From the NCBI GenBank assembly GCA_009783555.1, contig WRDH01000009.1, positions 1 through 64,000 on the forward strand: 64,000 nucleotides of DNA. The letters are read 5' to 3'. Source of the stretch: Oscillospiraceae bacterium (GTDB taxonomy: Bacteria > Bacillota > Clostridia > Oscillospirales > Oscillospiraceae). Position numbers and translations under genes: made by a program. The notes beneath the pieces were generated by a model. It worked only from the letters and a program-made list of their open reading frames with translations. It searched no databases and was not told the DNA's origin. Position 1 is the stretch's first letter. Each line of letters starts with the position of its first letter. This document shows, piece after piece, positions 334-27,659 of the stretch.

Positions 334-663
334 TTATCGACCGTTATAATATGGCTTAACTTTACTCAAAACCGATTTTTCTATTCGTTTATAATCTGAT
401 GTATGGACAAAATAAACTGATGTGATTTCATTGTTGAGATATTTATTTAGAATTAAATTATTGATTTTGCAATTGGTCGGTTGCCCGCCTTGATAGCAAT
501 TTTTTGGTGATATATTTCCATAACCAGTATTAAAACGCTTGTAAAGATCAACCGTTTCACCAATGTACATGAGAACTCCATTAATGATTAATGCATATAC
601 GCCGGAGAAGCCGCTATATATACTGCCGCATTCACTGGAAACAGATAAGTTGTCAATGTACAA
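334..663 (-). CDS. GIY-YIG domain protein, probably truncated at the 5' end
   Basis: The 109-residue product shows the GIY-YIG nuclease signature: SGVYALIING, then MYIGETVDLYKRF (the YIG element), and a late Glu (RIEKSV) where the family has its metal-binding acidic residue. Small stand-alone GIY-YIG proteins of this size occur in many Clostridia with no assigned role. The only possible start here is a TTG at 663-661, directly preceded by an in-frame TAA and lacking a ribosome site. The natural first codons have therefore probably been lost where this gene abuts the WYL remnant. The downstream frameshifted gene begins 9 bases after its stop, suggesting a former two-gene operon. Nuclease activity is inferred from the fold only. 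Confidence 0.7.
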   Translation of the reverse strand: MYIDNLSVSSECGSIYSGFSGVYALIINGVLMYIGETVDLYKRFNTGYGNISPKNCYQGGQPTNCKINNLILNKYLNNEITSVYFVHTSDYKRIEKSVLSKVKPYYNGR

Positions 664-1138
664 TTATCTTATAGGCTACGCAAGACCGACGGCATCATTT
701 CCCGGTACAGTAGATAGCGAACATTTCACATTGGAATCATTTCGTTTATCAAAAATTCAAAGAGCGGAAATCGACAGACAGCAAAAAGCCGGCAGCGGGA
801 AACTGAATCCCGAGCAGCTTAGAAAAATAAAAGAAAGCCGCGCAAAGCACGGCACAATGTTTATCGCTGACGAAGATAAGATACATGAGATAGTCGTAAG
901 ATTTACTGATGAAGGAAAACGCAAATATATCAATCAGGTACATATGCGGCCTTCACGGTACATTGACAGTGAACGCAACGGCAAAGTGAATAGTGATATC
1001 TATGTTTTCCGGTGTACGACACATCAGGCGATGGCTTATTTCTTTAAGTTTGGTTCTGATGCAGAAATATTATCGCCTTCGTTTCTAAGAGAGCAGTTTA
1101 AGCAAGAGTATGCTAAAGCCGCAAGGATATACGATTGA
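656..1138 (+). pseudogene. 3' remnant of a WYL-domain transcriptional regulator
   Basis: From the ATG at 656 the frame encodes YNYLIGYARPT followed by ESFRLSKIQRAEI, the pattern of the WYL ligand-sensing domain (a YLIGY strand and an FRLxRI strand). The C-terminal part, IHEIVVRFTDEG to KFGSDAEILSP, matches the WCX extension that follows WYL. The N-terminal winged helix-turn-helix and the first half of WYL are missing. Upstream codons in this frame (563-655) are only the antisense of the GIY-YIG gene. WYL proteins are often regulators beside phage-defence genes, and an Abi-family gene follows here. The remnant lacks a DNA-binding domain, a promoter and a ribosome site, so it is probably not functional. 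Confidence 0.65.
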
Positions 1139-1151
1139 AGTAAACAAAAGC

Positions 1152-1180
1152 TTGACAATTTACCTGTAAAGGTGTAAATT
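1152..1180 (+). promoter_or_regulatory. Strong promoter with a palindrome in the spacer, upstream of the small RNA and Abi gene
   Basis: A perfect -35 TTGACA (1152-1157), a 17-base spacer and a -10 TAAATT (1175-1180). The spacer contains ACCT-GTAA-AGGT nested inside AATTTAC/GTAAATT, an inverted repeat overlapping the -10, which is a plausible repressor site. It would drive the short RNA at 1187-1250 and, by read-through, the Abi gene. Confidence 0.6.
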
Positions 1181-1186
1181 AATGGT

Positions 1187-1250
1187 GTGATCGTGTTGCA
1201 GACACCTGTGAGGCCTGTGACCGGGAGGGCACCTGCGGGAGCCCTCTTTT
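1187..1250 (+). ncRNA. Short structured RNA ending in a terminator, upstream of an Abi gene (abiF-RNA-like candidate)
   Basis: About 64 nt lie between the predicted start site and a terminator hairpin: GAGGGC (1225-1230), 10-nt loop, GCCCTC (1241-1246), TTTT. A second short stem pairs GGTGT just before the start with ACACC at 1202-1206, and CCTGTGA occurs twice (1206-1212, 1214-1220). There is no reading frame of interest. Abi_2-family genes are reported to carry a conserved upstream noncoding RNA (the abiF RNA motif), proposed to act as an RNA antitoxin; position, size and terminator fit. The assignment rests on context, because I cannot run a covariance search. Confidence 0.55.
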
Positions 1251-1271
1251 ATATCAAAGGAAGATATTGCT

Positions 1272-2213
1272 ATGCAGATACATAAACCATTCTTAACCTA
1301 TACACAACAAATTGATAAGCTTGAGCACGAAAAAAACCTTGTTATAGCAGACCGTAACTATGCGGAAGCCATGCTGAAGCAAAACAGCTATTATGCACTA
1401 ATAAGTGGATATAAAAAGTTGTTTTGGAACACAACAACAAAGAAGTACAAAAATAACACGACATTCGAAGAAGTTGTTGCGCTATACAAGTATGATGAGA
1501 GTCTGCGAGAATTATTTTTGAAATATATTTTACAAATTGAGCAAAAAATGCGTTCCTTGCTCTCATATTATTTTTCTATGAAACACGGTAACCAACAATC
1601 AAAGTATTTATCACCAGTTAACTACGACCAGAGTCCTAAGAAAGCACGCGATTTAAAGCGACTTATAGGTGTTATTTGCAACATTGTACAGACTACCACA
1701 AAATATCACTATGTCGCACACCATAGGGTTAAATATGGAAACGTACCATTATGGGTCTTGGTAAAAGTACTGACATTCGGTAATATATCTATGATGTACC
1801 AATGCTTTACTCAAGATATACAGATTGATATCAGCAAAAATTTTTGCAATGTGAATGAAAAAGAACTCGCACAATTCCTGAGGTCAATGGCAAAGTTCAG
1901 AAACATATGTGCTCATAATGACAGATTATTTTCTTACGCAAACAAGGACGATATACCTGATACAGTCATCCATGCAAAGCTTGGGATAGTAAAAAAGGGA
2001 ACTCAATACATATACGGTAAGAGAGATTTATTCAGCATGGTTGTTGCGTTTAGATACCTGCTTGAAAAAGAGGATTTCTATGTCTTCAAAAGGCAAATGT
2101 CAAGGATAATTGACAGGTTTGTCTCTCTATCAAATAATGTTTCACACAACGTGTTACTGCATGAGATGGGATTTCCTGCTAACTGGAAGAAAGTATCGTC
2201 CTTTAAAATATAG
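1272..2213 (+). CDS. Abi family (AbiF/AbiD, Abi_2) abortive-infection protein
   Basis: A 313-residue protein of the Abi_2 family, whose members abort phage infection or act as toxins. The N-terminal region (HKPFLTYTQQIDKLEHEKN, then SYYALISGYKKLF) is characteristic. The HEPN-type RNase motif R-N-x3-H-N appears as FRNICAHNDRLF near residues 213-224, implying RNA cleavage. The ATG at 1272 has AAAGGAAG 8 bases upstream. It lies 21 bases after the terminator of the short RNA, so expression likely depends on terminator read-through, as in toxin modules held by an RNA antitoxin. It is full length for the family. The mechanism here is inferred. Confidence 0.85.
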   Translation: MQIHKPFLTYTQQIDKLEHEKNLVIADRNYAEAMLKQNSYYALISGYKKLFWNTTTKKYKNNTTFEEVVALYKYDESLRELFLKYILQIEQKMRSLLSYYFSMKHGNQQSKYLSPVNYDQSPKKARDLKRLIGVICNIVQTTTKYHYVAHHRVKYGNVPLWVLVKVLTFGNISMMYQCFTQDIQIDISKNFCNVNEKELAQFLRSMAKFRNICAHNDRLFSYANKDDIPDTVIHAKLGIVKKGTQYIYGKRDLFSMVVAFRYLLEKEDFYVFKRQMSRIIDRFVSLSNNVSHNVLLHEMGFPANWKKVSSFKI

Positions 2214-2393: not shown

Positions 2394-3428
2394 TTAACTG
2401 AAAGATAATTCGTTGCTTTCAAGTTCTTTGATATAACCAACAATGGATGCCTTTGTGTTGCCGCTTGCTTTAATCTCGTTTAATAGCTCATCTGCTTGCT
2501 CAGCTGTCACTGCCAGAAGCAGACCGCCGGAGGTTTGGGGGTCGAACATTAATTCTGCTTTCCATAGCGGGAGTTTACTTGTATCAACACGAGAGCCTAC
2601 GTAGTCACGGTTGCGCTTGCCACCGCCTGTTATCCAGTCCTCTTCAATGTAGTGCATCACGTTACGTAGATAAGGTAGATTGTCGCAGTAAATTTCTGCG
2701 GAAGCTTTTCCTGCGAGCATTTCAAGAAGGTGTGCAATGAGTCCGAAGCCTGTTATATCCGTGCATGCGCTGATGTCAAATGCTGCGGCTTTTTCGGCTG
2801 CGTATTTATTCAAGCGTTCCATTGAGGTGATAGCTTCTTCTATATTTTCTACCTTTGCCTCGCCGCCTCTGTATGCGGCTGTAATGATTCCTGTGCCGAG
2901 TGGCTTTGTCAGTATAAGTTTGTCACCGACCCTTGGGGTGTTGTTACAATAATATTTATCGGATTCGGCAATCCCTGTGACGGCAAGCCCGTATTTTATA
3001 CCTTCATCATAGATAGAGTGTCCACCCGCAAGAAGAGCTCCTGCCTCAGCGCATTTTTCAGCACCGCCAGCCAGGATTTCTTGTAAAATGCGGTTGTCCA
3101 AGTTTTGCGGAAAGCAAACAATATTTAATGCATAGAGAGGCTTACCGCCCATTGCATATATGTCGCTAAGTGCGTTAGCGGCAGTGATTTTTCCAAAGGT
3201 TCTTGCGTCTGCAACCATCGGCGGGAAGAAATCGGTTGTTGATAACAGGCAGTGCTTATCATCTAACCGGTACACAGCCGCATCGTCGGACGAGTTAAAG
3301 CTGACGAGCAACCTGTCGTCTGATGGGCATGCTATGCTGCTGAGAATAGCTCTAAGCTCACCCGGAGCTATCTTAGTACCTCAGCCGCCACCGGTGCTAT
3401 ACTCAAAAAGCGAAGGAAGTTTTTCCAT
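2394..3428 (-). CDS. selD: Selenide, water dikinase, a selenoprotein (Sec at residue 16)
   Basis: Makes selenophosphate from selenide and ATP, the selenium donor for selenocysteine synthesis. Reading from the ATG at 3428-3426 gives EYSTGGG, then TGA (3383-3381, codon 16), then GTKIAPGEL; the UGA sits where SelD has its catalytic Cys or Sec in a glycine-rich loop. With UGA read as Sec the protein is 344 residues, normal for the family. The rest contains the GGHSI and FDPQTSGGLL signatures. AGAAAGG lies 8 bases before the ATG, supporting the start upstream of the UGA; starting at 3311 would delete the active site. A hairpin follows the UGA. The gene is divergent from selA-selB, so its own synthesis needs their products. 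Confidence 0.95.
3346..3371 (-). promoter_or_regulatory. Candidate SECIS hairpin of selD
   Basis: Nine bases after the selD UGA the mRNA can form a perfect 7-bp stem, ATAGCTC (3371-3365) with GAGCTAT (3352-3346), around a 12-nt loop. Bacterial SECIS elements lie immediately 3' of the UGA within the coding sequence and bind the SelB winged-helix domain. Position fits; the loop was not checked against a model. Confidence 0.55.
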
Positions 3429-24390: not shown

Positions 24391-24486
24391 TGGCGGAGGC
24401 AAATGGGAATCGAACCCATCCGTGGAGGAACGCTCCACACAACGGTTTTGAAGACCGCGAGGCACACCAGTCACCCTCCTACCTCC
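24391..24486 (-). tRNA. selC: tRNA-Sec (anticodon TCA)
   Basis: A 96-nt tRNA on the reverse strand. An 8-bp acceptor stem (GGAGGTAG with TTGCCTCC, allowing G-U) is followed by G and an encoded CCA. The anticodon loop TTCAAAA carries TCA (complement of 24449-24451), the variable arm is long (GGAG/CTCC hairpin) and the T arm is GGATGGGTTCGATTCCCAT. The length, 8-bp acceptor and UCA anticodon are diagnostic of bacterial tRNA-Sec. It lies upstream of and divergent from the glycine reductase genes it serves. Confidence 0.97.
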
Positions 24487-26345: not shown

Positions 26346-27659
26346 ATGAGTAAATTTAGAGTAGTTCATTATATCAATCAATTTTATGCCGGTATCGGCG
26401 GTGAAGAGTTTGCAGACCACAAGCCCGAAGTAAGGGAAGGTGTTGTAGGCCCGGGAATGGCTTTAGCCGGAGCATTCGGCGACAAAGCAGAAATCATCAG
26501 TACCGTTGTTTGCGGAGACTCATTCTTTAACGAAAATGTCGCAGAAGCGAAAAAAACCATTCTTGACATGGTAAAGAAAGCAAACCCTGACATTTTCATC
26601 GCAGGACCCGCTTTTAATGCAGGGCGTTACGGCGTTGCATGCGGAACTATTTGCGAAGCTGTTAAGGAAGAGTTGAATATCCCTGTAATTACGGGAATGT
26701 TTGAAGAAAACCCCGGCACTGATATGTTCAAGGATAAGATGTATATCGTAGCTACAAAACCCAGCGCTGCAGGTATGCGTGATGCGATTCCGGTAATTGC
26801 AGCACTTGCTCTTAAACTCGCCGGTAAAGAAAAAATCGGAGCATCGGTTGAAGAAGGATATTTGCCGAACAACACTCGTGTCAATTTCTTCGAAAAAGAA
26901 AGAGGCTCACGCCGTGCCGTAGATATGCTGATCAAAAAAATGGCGGGCAAACCGTTTGTCACTGAATACCCGATGCCTGATTTTGACAGAGTTGAGCCGA
27001 ATCCTGCCGTAAATGATTTCAAATCAATAACAGTTGCGCTTGTCACATCGGGTGGTATTGTTCCCAAAGGCAATCCCGACCACATTGAATCATCAAGTGC
27101 ATCAAAATATGGTGAATATGATATAACCGGAGTAAATGACCTGACAGCAGAAACGTACGAAACAGCACATGGCGGCTACGACCCTGTTTACGCAAACGCT
27201 GATGCAGACCGCGTGCTTCCTGTTGATGTTATGCGTGATTTTGAACGTGAGGGCATTATCGGAAAGCTCCACAACAAGTTTTATACAACAGTCGGCAATG
27301 GAACTTCGACTAAAAGCTCGAAACAATTTGCCGCGGAGTATGCTCAAAAACTCAAAAATGACAATGTACAGGCTGTCATCCTCACATCAACGTGAGGAAC
27401 TTGCACACGTTGCGGTGCAACGATGGTAAAAGAGATTGAACGTGCCGGAATTCCGGTGGTTCATGTCTGTACGGTAACTCCGATATCAATGACAGTCGGC
27501 GCAAACAGAATCGTCCCCGCAGTCGCTATCCCGCACCCTCTGGGCAACCCCTCACTAAGCGCAGCCGAAGAAAAGCAACTGCGACGCAAGATTCTGACAA
27601 CAGCACTCGGCGCACTATCAACAGAAGTCGACGGTCAAACGATATTTGAAGTTAAGTAG
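26346..27659 (+). CDS. grdB: Glycine reductase complex B, selenoprotein GrdB (Sec 350)
   Basis: The gamma subunit of component B; its selenocysteine takes the carboxymethyl group from the glycine Schiff base. The frame runs 349 codons to TGA at 27393-27395, then continues in the same frame as GTCTRCGATMVKEIERAG to a TAG at 27659. TST-U-GTCTRCGATM is the family active-site motif, so the UGA is Sec 350 and the protein is 437 residues. Treating it as two genes would leave the second half without a start. GGGGGAGAG precedes the ATG, 12 bases after grdE. Confidence 0.97.
27401..27422 (+). promoter_or_regulatory. Candidate SECIS hairpin of grdB
   Basis: After the UGA two overlapping hairpins are possible: TTGCAC/GTGCAA (27401-27420, 8-nt loop) or CGTTGC/GCAACG (27408-27422) with a GGU triloop. 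The second, 12 bases after the UGA with GGU at the tip, resembles the apical part of known bacterial SECIS elements. Structure probing would decide between them. Confidence 0.5.

What the first reader, a model, noticed from the sequence alone, without database searches (positions are those of the whole stretch)
1152..2213. Abi-family HEPN gene behind a terminator-ended small RNA: candidate RNA-controlled toxin
Seen: consensus promoter, about 64 nt of structured noncoding sequence, an intrinsic terminator, then a ribosome site and an Abi gene with RNICAHN. Known: Abi_2/AbiF genes have a reported conserved upstream RNA, and type III toxins use promoter-RNA-terminator-toxin order. Inference: this RNA restrains the Abi protein. 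The palindrome in the promoter spacer suggests an added regulator, perhaps the WYL protein whose remnant lies next door.
Basis: partly seen in the sequence, partly recalled or inferred. Interest (0 to 1): 0.65.

Follow-up and report, generated by a model that had tools for sequence, protein, structure and literature searches.

The report
RNA-leashed Abi toxin; phages carry copies
This stretch holds a bacterial self-poisoning anti-virus gene kept in check by a small folded RNA encoded just before it, and close relatives of that RNA turn up alone in virus genomes, often beside transfer-RNA genes, as if the viruses carry their own antidote.

Summary
Window 1152-2213 is promoter, 73-nt structured RNA, terminator, ribosome site, and an intact Abi_2 gene with HEPN motif RNICAH. 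Rfam abiF does not match, but the RNA is real: 88 of 98 homologous upstream regions carry it, and its main helix pairs in 273 of 273 cells with double changes at 6 of 7 pairs. The protein folds like PbAbiF, solved bound to its inhibitory ncRNA (Z 23.3). Best reading: an AbiF-type, type III-like toxin with an RNA antitoxin of a class missing from Rfam. The WYL/palindrome regulator idea is not supported.

Searching by RNA alone gave something unexpected: the same RNA sits without any Abi_2 gene in 18 of 24 viral contigs, mostly promoterless, in phage packaging, lysis or tRNA-array contexts. Independently, the Rfam abiF class sits alone in 7 of 7 named phage genomes I examined, 4-5 nt before a tRNA in three cyanophages. 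I propose that phages carry decoy AbiF antitoxins. No transcript, binding or toxicity was tested; the Cell 2025 AbiF paper could not be read.

The parts
1152..1180 (+). promoter, TTGACA-17-TAAATT
   Evidence: conserved position in 77 of 87 relatives
1184..1256 (+). noncoding RNA (model R1, 77.3 bits); start of transcription inferred near 1186-1188
1195..1221 (+). hairpin 1, the presumed toxin-binding element: helix 1195-1201 with 1215-1221, inner helix 1205-1207 with 1211-1213
   Evidence: outer helix 273 of 273 cells paired, 6 of 7 pairs with change on both sides; inner helix 78.6% paired
1225..1250 (+). intrinsic terminator: stem 1225-1246 with UGCG loop, then TTTT
1257..1263 (+). ribosome binding site AAGGAAG
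   Evidence: read
1272..2213 (+). Abi_2 / AbiD-F HEPN ribonuclease, 313 aa, R210-x4-H215
563..1138 (+). WYL/WCX-type protein fragment upstream; neighbour only, association not conserved

Best explanation
The locus is an AbiF-type, type III-like toxin-antitoxin module. Shown: a predicted promoter precedes a short RNA that ends at a terminator; the RNA's first hairpin is maintained by compensatory change across the subfamily; the downstream protein has the HEPN R-x4-H motif and the fold of PbAbiF, which is solved as a dimer bound to ncRNA. Inferred: most transcripts stop at the terminator and give an excess of RNA; read-through makes the toxin mRNA; each toxin subunit binds a hairpin that blocks its RNase site; when infection disturbs RNA supply, free toxin cuts RNA and stops growth. 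Because the RNA acts in trans, a phage that supplies the same hairpin could keep the toxin shut. The stand-alone copies in phage genomes are most simply read as such decoys (inferred, less certain).
For: Covariation: helix 273/273 paired, 0 of 500 shuffles as high for the whole structure, and slid controls far lower. The RNA lies upstream in 88 of 98 loci. RNA-first search: Abi_2 lies within 1.5 kb of 16 of 31 strong hits and of 0 of 45 weak hits. In L097 the RNA lies 47 nt after the toxin gene with its own promoter and an inverted inner base pair, so it cannot be a leader there. L046 has two tandem RNA units. Fold: 8vz6 PbAbiF-ncRNA Z 23.3, rmsd 2.5, 281 aligned, then Cas13d Z 8.5. Published: RCd22 neutralises AbiFCd in cis and in trans by direct binding (PMC12373285: abstract, sections 7 and 11, first part of the discussion).
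Against: No Rfam match. No transcript, binding or toxicity data for this locus. 15 of 31 RNA-first strong hits lack Abi_2 nearby, so the RNA is not tied strictly to the toxin; some of these are near contig ends (L121, L207, L211) or look like decayed loci (L214, L219, L220). The folding energy is unremarkable.
Confidence: 0.85

Rival explanations
1. The RNA is only a cis attenuator or leader of the abi mRNA, possibly sensing a phage signal, as suggested for L. lactis AbiD1, and does not bind the protein.
For: A terminator lies between RNA and gene; PMC12373285 discusses termination control and an AbiD1 5'UTR switch.
Against: L097 has the RNA after the gene with its own promoter; stand-alone copies keep hairpin 1, while in at least four viral copies (L187, L195, L196, L197) no terminator aligns (by eye); RCd22 works in trans.
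Confidence: 0.1
2. Stand-alone RNAs are decaying remnants of lost toxin modules or hitch-hikers, not phage decoys.
For: L220 keeps promoter and RNA but no toxin; the L219 helix is decaying; 6 of 15 genomic stand-alone copies keep a 9/12 promoter.
Against: Viral stand-alone copies mostly lack a promoter (2 of 18 against 77 of 87; Fisher 2e-10), keep the helix in 126 of 126 cells (pattern-selected set), lie among packaging, lysis, integrase or tRNA genes, and the same placement recurs with a second RNA class in named phages.
Confidence: 0.3
3. The RNA guides the HEPN nuclease to targets, Cas13-like.
For: Fold similarity to Cas13d and Cas13b (Z 8.5 and 5.9); Cas13 is proposed to descend from AbiD/F (PMC12165695, section 3 passage).
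Against: No variable spacer-like segment: a terminator follows hairpin 1. Published AbiF RNAs inhibit.
Confidence: 0.03
4. In phages the hairpin is a processing or packaging element of tRNA arrays or late operons unrelated to AbiF.
For: It lies 4-5 nt before tRNA genes in S-CREM1, S-SZBM1, S-SRM01 and L197.
Against: It matches the Abi_2-linked RNA models well (33.6-88.6 bits; abiF over gathering score in 7 of 7 phages) and also occurs far from tRNAs.
Confidence: 0.1

Closest known systems
AbiFCd-RCd22 of Clostridioides difficile phi027 (PMC12373285; abstract and named sections read)
   Same: Order promoter-RNA-terminator-Abi_2 gene; HEPN motif; conserved hairpin near the 5' end; RNA said to neutralise in cis and trans.
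   Different: RCd22 holds two Rfam abiF motifs (RF03085); here one hairpin of another sequence class that RF03085 does not match.
PbAbiF-AbiFr, PDB 8vz6 (Zilberzwige-Tal et al.; paper not held, known from PMC12373285 and PMC12737573 passages and the PDB title)
   Same: Full-length homology (E 6.9e-22) and fold (Z 23.3).
   Different: 22-23% identity; its RNA was not available for comparison. That study made AbiF covariance models (named in PMC12804078) which may already cover this RNA.
Phage phiTE pseudo-ToxI (PMC3475682; passages read)
   Same: A phage-encoded mimic of a toxin-binding RNA that lets the phage escape abortive infection.
   Different: ToxI/ToxN, an unrelated RNA and toxin; tandem repeats.
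RNA anti-CRISPRs, Racrs (PMC10651486; abstract and passages read)
   Same: Solitary phage copies of a nuclease-binding RNA repeat; found there for all CRISPR types except VI.
   Different: Mimic CRISPR repeats; the copies here mimic the antitoxin of a proposed type VI ancestor.
Synechococcus phage S-CREM1 abiF sRNA (PMC9964418; passages read)
   Same: abiF RNA reported in a lytic phage.
   Different: The passages do not interpret it as a decoy, and do not note that it lies 4 nt before a tRNA in a genome without Abi_2.

Membership tests
Abi_2 (AbiD/AbiF) protein family | Pfam Abi_2 profile over cut-off | tested here: met
   161.5 bits against cut-off 25.6; PADLOC AbiD 8.7e-66
Abi_2 (AbiD/AbiF) protein family | HEPN R-x4-H catalytic motif, conserved | tested here: met
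   R and H in 90 of 93 extracted proteins, the other 3 with a gap there (3 of 96 loci without a start dropped)
Abi_2 (AbiD/AbiF) protein family | AbiF fold | tested here: met
   8vz6 Z 23.3, rmsd 2.5, 281 aligned, model pLDDT 95.7
Rfam abiF RNA (RF03085) | covariance model match | tested here: not met
   no match at E<=10 in the whole genome, none at gathering score in the window
Type III-like toxin-antitoxin with RNA antitoxin | structured RNA directly upstream in the same transcription unit, terminator between | tested here: met
   (unit predicted, no transcript seen)
Type III-like toxin-antitoxin with RNA antitoxin | tandem RNA repeats (typical of ToxI; recalled) | tested here: not met
   one unit in the window; two only in L046; PbAbiF is said to bind one RNA per monomer (PMC12737573)
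Type III-like toxin-antitoxin with RNA antitoxin | toxin toxic alone, RNA binds and neutralises it | not testable with these tools
   needs bench work
Phage decoy antitoxin RNA | RNA in a phage genome without the toxin gene | tested here: met
   18 of 18 stand-alone viral records (possibly fragments) lack Abi_2; 7 of 7 named phage records lack it; positive controls L181, L182 and phiC2 hit
Phage decoy antitoxin RNA | expression during infection and suppression of AbiF | not testable with these tools
   no data

The most novel reading that the evidence does not exclude
Phages widely carry stand-alone AbiF antitoxin RNAs as counter-defence. At least two different RNA classes (the one in this window, in contigs from phages of unnamed hosts, and Rfam abiF, in cyanophages, mycobacteriophages, an Aeromonas and a Salicola phage) have been placed, apparently independently, within tRNA arrays or next to packaging genes, using phage transcripts instead of their own promoter. 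Phage tRNAs and the RNA decoy together would then blunt an RNA-cutting toxin. This would be the AbiF counterpart of RNA anti-CRISPRs, for the lineage from which Cas13 is thought to have come.
Probability: 0.6. Interest if true: 0.8.

Novelty: new variant of a known kind. Interest (0 to 1): 0.62.

Why it matters
It adds an AbiF RNA class that Rfam 15 lacks, with strong covariation and a minimal conserved hairpin to mutate. More important, it predicts a counter-defence in ordinary laboratory phages: Redno2 and Baka grow on Mycobacterium smegmatis, and deleting one 37-nt RNA near a tRNA gene would test it. It also gives a reason, beyond codon use, for looking at what else sits in phage tRNA arrays.

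Tried and rejected
Rfam at permissive threshold on the region: one chance-level match (Atu_C8, E 1.3), rejected. A single-protein scan of viral contigs found no relative; an alignment query did. The WYL regulator and promoter palindrome were tested and not supported. Genome RNA hits of 20-31 bits were treated as terminator-driven noise: none of 45 such loci had Abi_2. Chance was checked with a reversed pattern: 2 viral stretches against 17; one of them scores 20.1 bits against the RNA model and the other does not score, the real ones 33.6-88.6. So one or two of the 18 stand-alone viral copies could be chance; the weakest are L193 and L187. Bias: the patterns fix most helix letters, so in the first scan only pair 15/36 tests pairing freely (all viral matches pair there; chance 0.375 each). 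MT837082.1 and MT838012.1 looked like stand-alone phage copies but carry an Abi_2 gene. A search with the L201 RNA in named phages found nothing, so the window's RNA class has no named stand-alone phage copy yet. Of 43 phage records similar to the S-CREM1 RNA I examined 7, S-CREM1 included, chosen by me; the 43 include GenBank/RefSeq duplicates, and 31 are Mycobacterium entries, most of them weak matches. Absence from print rests on searches in an open-licence library only; the Cell 2025 AbiF paper and the paper I took to be the 224-motif RNA survey (id recalled) are not held, and supplements were not read. Novelty of the RNA class is therefore uncertain.

Full report
WHAT IS THERE. Window 1152-2213 reads promoter (TTGACA-17-TAAATT), a noncoding RNA of about 70 nt, an intrinsic terminator, a ribosome site and a 313-aa Abi_2 gene. 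The protein matches Pfam Abi_2 (E 3.6e-47) and PADLOC AbiD (8.7e-66) and carries RNICAHN, the HEPN R-x4-H motif. Rfam finds nothing at the RNA. Folding energy is only mildly better than shuffles (z -2.0 at best), so the RNA had to be judged by comparison.

THE RNA IS REAL. I gathered relatives by protein: 16 of 250 family genomes have one, 198 stretches in GTDB contigs of which the best 80 were kept, and 15 viral contigs. Of 98 upstream regions (window, L003, L004, L019-L113), 88 hold the RNA. The ten without were L003, L097, L105 and L107-L113. The model later found it in L097 after the gene (65.5 bits) and in divergent form in L105 and L003 (36.9 and 30.0 bits). In 39 sequences under 95% identical the outer helix pairs in 273 of 273 cells and 6 of 7 pairs show change on both sides. 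The ten-pair structure gives 93.6% paired cells against 85.9% in shuffles, 0 of 500 as high, and slid controls reach at most 50.5%. The inner three-pair helix is weaker (78.6%), but L097 inverts its closing C-G to G-C. G26, G28 and the C23-G31 pair are invariant in the 39, which suggests a protein-read loop (inference). Beyond the standard pairs, columns 21 and 29 covary (AA 30, GG 4, UA 3, GU 2), possibly a non-canonical contact.

THE PROTEIN. R and H of R-x4-H are present in 90 of 93 extracted proteins, the other 3 having a gap there. The AlphaFold2 model (pLDDT 95.7, pTM 0.91) matches PbAbiF bound to ncRNA (8vz6; Foldseek E 1.6e-11; Z 23.3, rmsd 2.5, 281 aligned). Cas13d (Z 8.5) and Cas13b (Z 5.9) follow, and everything else is at 3.6 or below. 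By sequence 8vz6 is found at E 6.9e-22. A shared fold does not by itself show function.

HOW IT PROBABLY WORKS. The closest studied case is AbiFCd-RCd22: toxic protein, short RNA ended by a terminator before the gene, neutralisation in cis and in trans by direct binding, stem needed (PMC12373285: abstract, sections 7 and 11, first part of the discussion). The same order is here. Trans action is favoured here by L097, where the RNA is a separate unit 47 nt after the toxin gene with its own promoter, and by two tandem units in L046.

RNA-FIRST SEARCH. Model R1 was run on 394 order-level, 398 phylum-level and 391 class-level genomes (overlapping sets). Scores are bimodal in the order and phylum sets: 44 bits and above, or 31 and below; the class search was cut at E 1e-8. 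Of 31 pooled strong loci, the window included, 16 have Abi_2 within 1.5 kb and 15 do not. Of 45 weak loci none has it. The stand-alone genomic copies are mixed. Some are prophage copies near an ArpU-like gene, in two of three cases ahead of terminase or HNH genes (L146, L218, L222). Three lie before a zeta-toxin-like operon (L144, L216, L219). Some are apparently decayed (L214, L219, L220) and some lie near contig ends (L121, L207, L211) (functions named by eye except the ArpU-like gene of L191, which carries the same RNA as L146).

PHAGE COPIES. Two patterns in IMG/VR gave 17 and 21 stretches, 24 contigs in all. All keep the 7-bp helix and score 33.6-88.6 bits. Six carry Abi_2 next to it; 18 do not, and Abi_2 is absent from all 18 whole records, while both positive controls hit. 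The records may be fragments. A reversed control pattern gave 2 stretches. In the 18, the helix pairs in 126 of 126 cells (a selected set), 15 of 18 keep TGA at model columns 5-7 (7 of the 18 were found with a pattern that demands it), and at least four lack an aligned terminator (by eye). A properly placed promoter of 9/12 is seen in 2 of 18, against 77 of 87 Abi_2-linked RNAs. Neighbouring genes include portal and major head protein, small and large terminase, tape measure, endolysin, integrase and ArpU-like regulator (20 proteins sent, 3 without any match; 'ArpU-like' is my label for a PHROG transcriptional regulator). tRNA genes are present in 9 of 18 loci, within 100 nt in 5, and in 0 of 6 Abi_2-linked loci.

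A SECOND RNA CLASS DOES THE SAME. A paper reports an Rfam abiF sRNA in lytic cyanophage S-CREM1 (PMC9964418, passages). In the record it lies between tRNA-Asn and tRNA-Gly, 4 nt before the latter, and the 178-kb genome has no Abi_2. Similar RNAs are in other named phages. I took six more: S-SZBM1 (4 nt before tRNA-Ala), S-SRM01 (5 nt before a tRNA), mycobacteriophages Redno2 and Baka (269-270 nt before tRNA-Gly), Aeromonas phage PZL-Ah8 (between connector and capsid assembly genes) and Salicola phage CGphi29 (upstream of the large terminase gene). All 7 pass the abiF gathering score and none of the 7 has Abi_2, while the control phiC2 does.

READING. Phage mimicry of a toxin-binding RNA is known for pseudo-ToxI (PMC3475682, passages), and of CRISPR repeats for Racrs, found for all CRISPR types except VI (PMC10651486, passages). 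AbiD/F is proposed as the ancestor of type VI Cas13 (PMC12165695, passage). The stand-alone phage RNAs fit the same logic. What is shown is presence, structure, context and absence of the toxin gene; expression, binding and protection are not shown.

LIMITS. The Cell 2025 AbiF study is not held, and its covariance models (named in PMC12804078, passages) may include this RNA, so 'not in Rfam 15' is the most I can claim for the RNA class. The decoy reading did not appear in the listings and passages I saw from ten searches of the open library (named under Tried and rejected).

Noticed in passing
window 2394-3428 (-): selD reads as a selenoprotein: an in-frame TGA is residue 16 of MEKLPSLFEYSTGGG-U-GTK. 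It sits beside selA- and selB-like ORFs (names by eye), and the window also has tRNA-Sec (24395-24486) and a SECIS_4 element (27396-27433).
   Followed up: partly
L005, L007, L008, L009, L011 and L006, directly upstream of more distant Abi_2 genes: Another recurrent RNA with a G/C-rich closing stem and a conserved CACCTCT or GCCTCT segment lies before these genes. Rfam does not match it in the five; L006 also has a second RNA that is Rfam abiF.
   Followed up: no
L144, L216, L219: The RNA lies just before a small ORF and a zeta-toxin-like gene, in related genomes; the helix is decaying in L219.
   Followed up: no
L046:246-386: Two tandem copies of the RNA before one toxin gene.
   Followed up: no
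L211: A stand-alone RNA with a strong promoter lies beside AbiEi-like and HicB-like ORFs (named by eye), suggesting toxin-antitoxin islands keep the RNA after losing the toxin.
   Followed up: no
G000:C7:8447-9283 (L002): The same genome has a second, distant Abi_2 gene (24% identity) without this RNA.
   Followed up: partly
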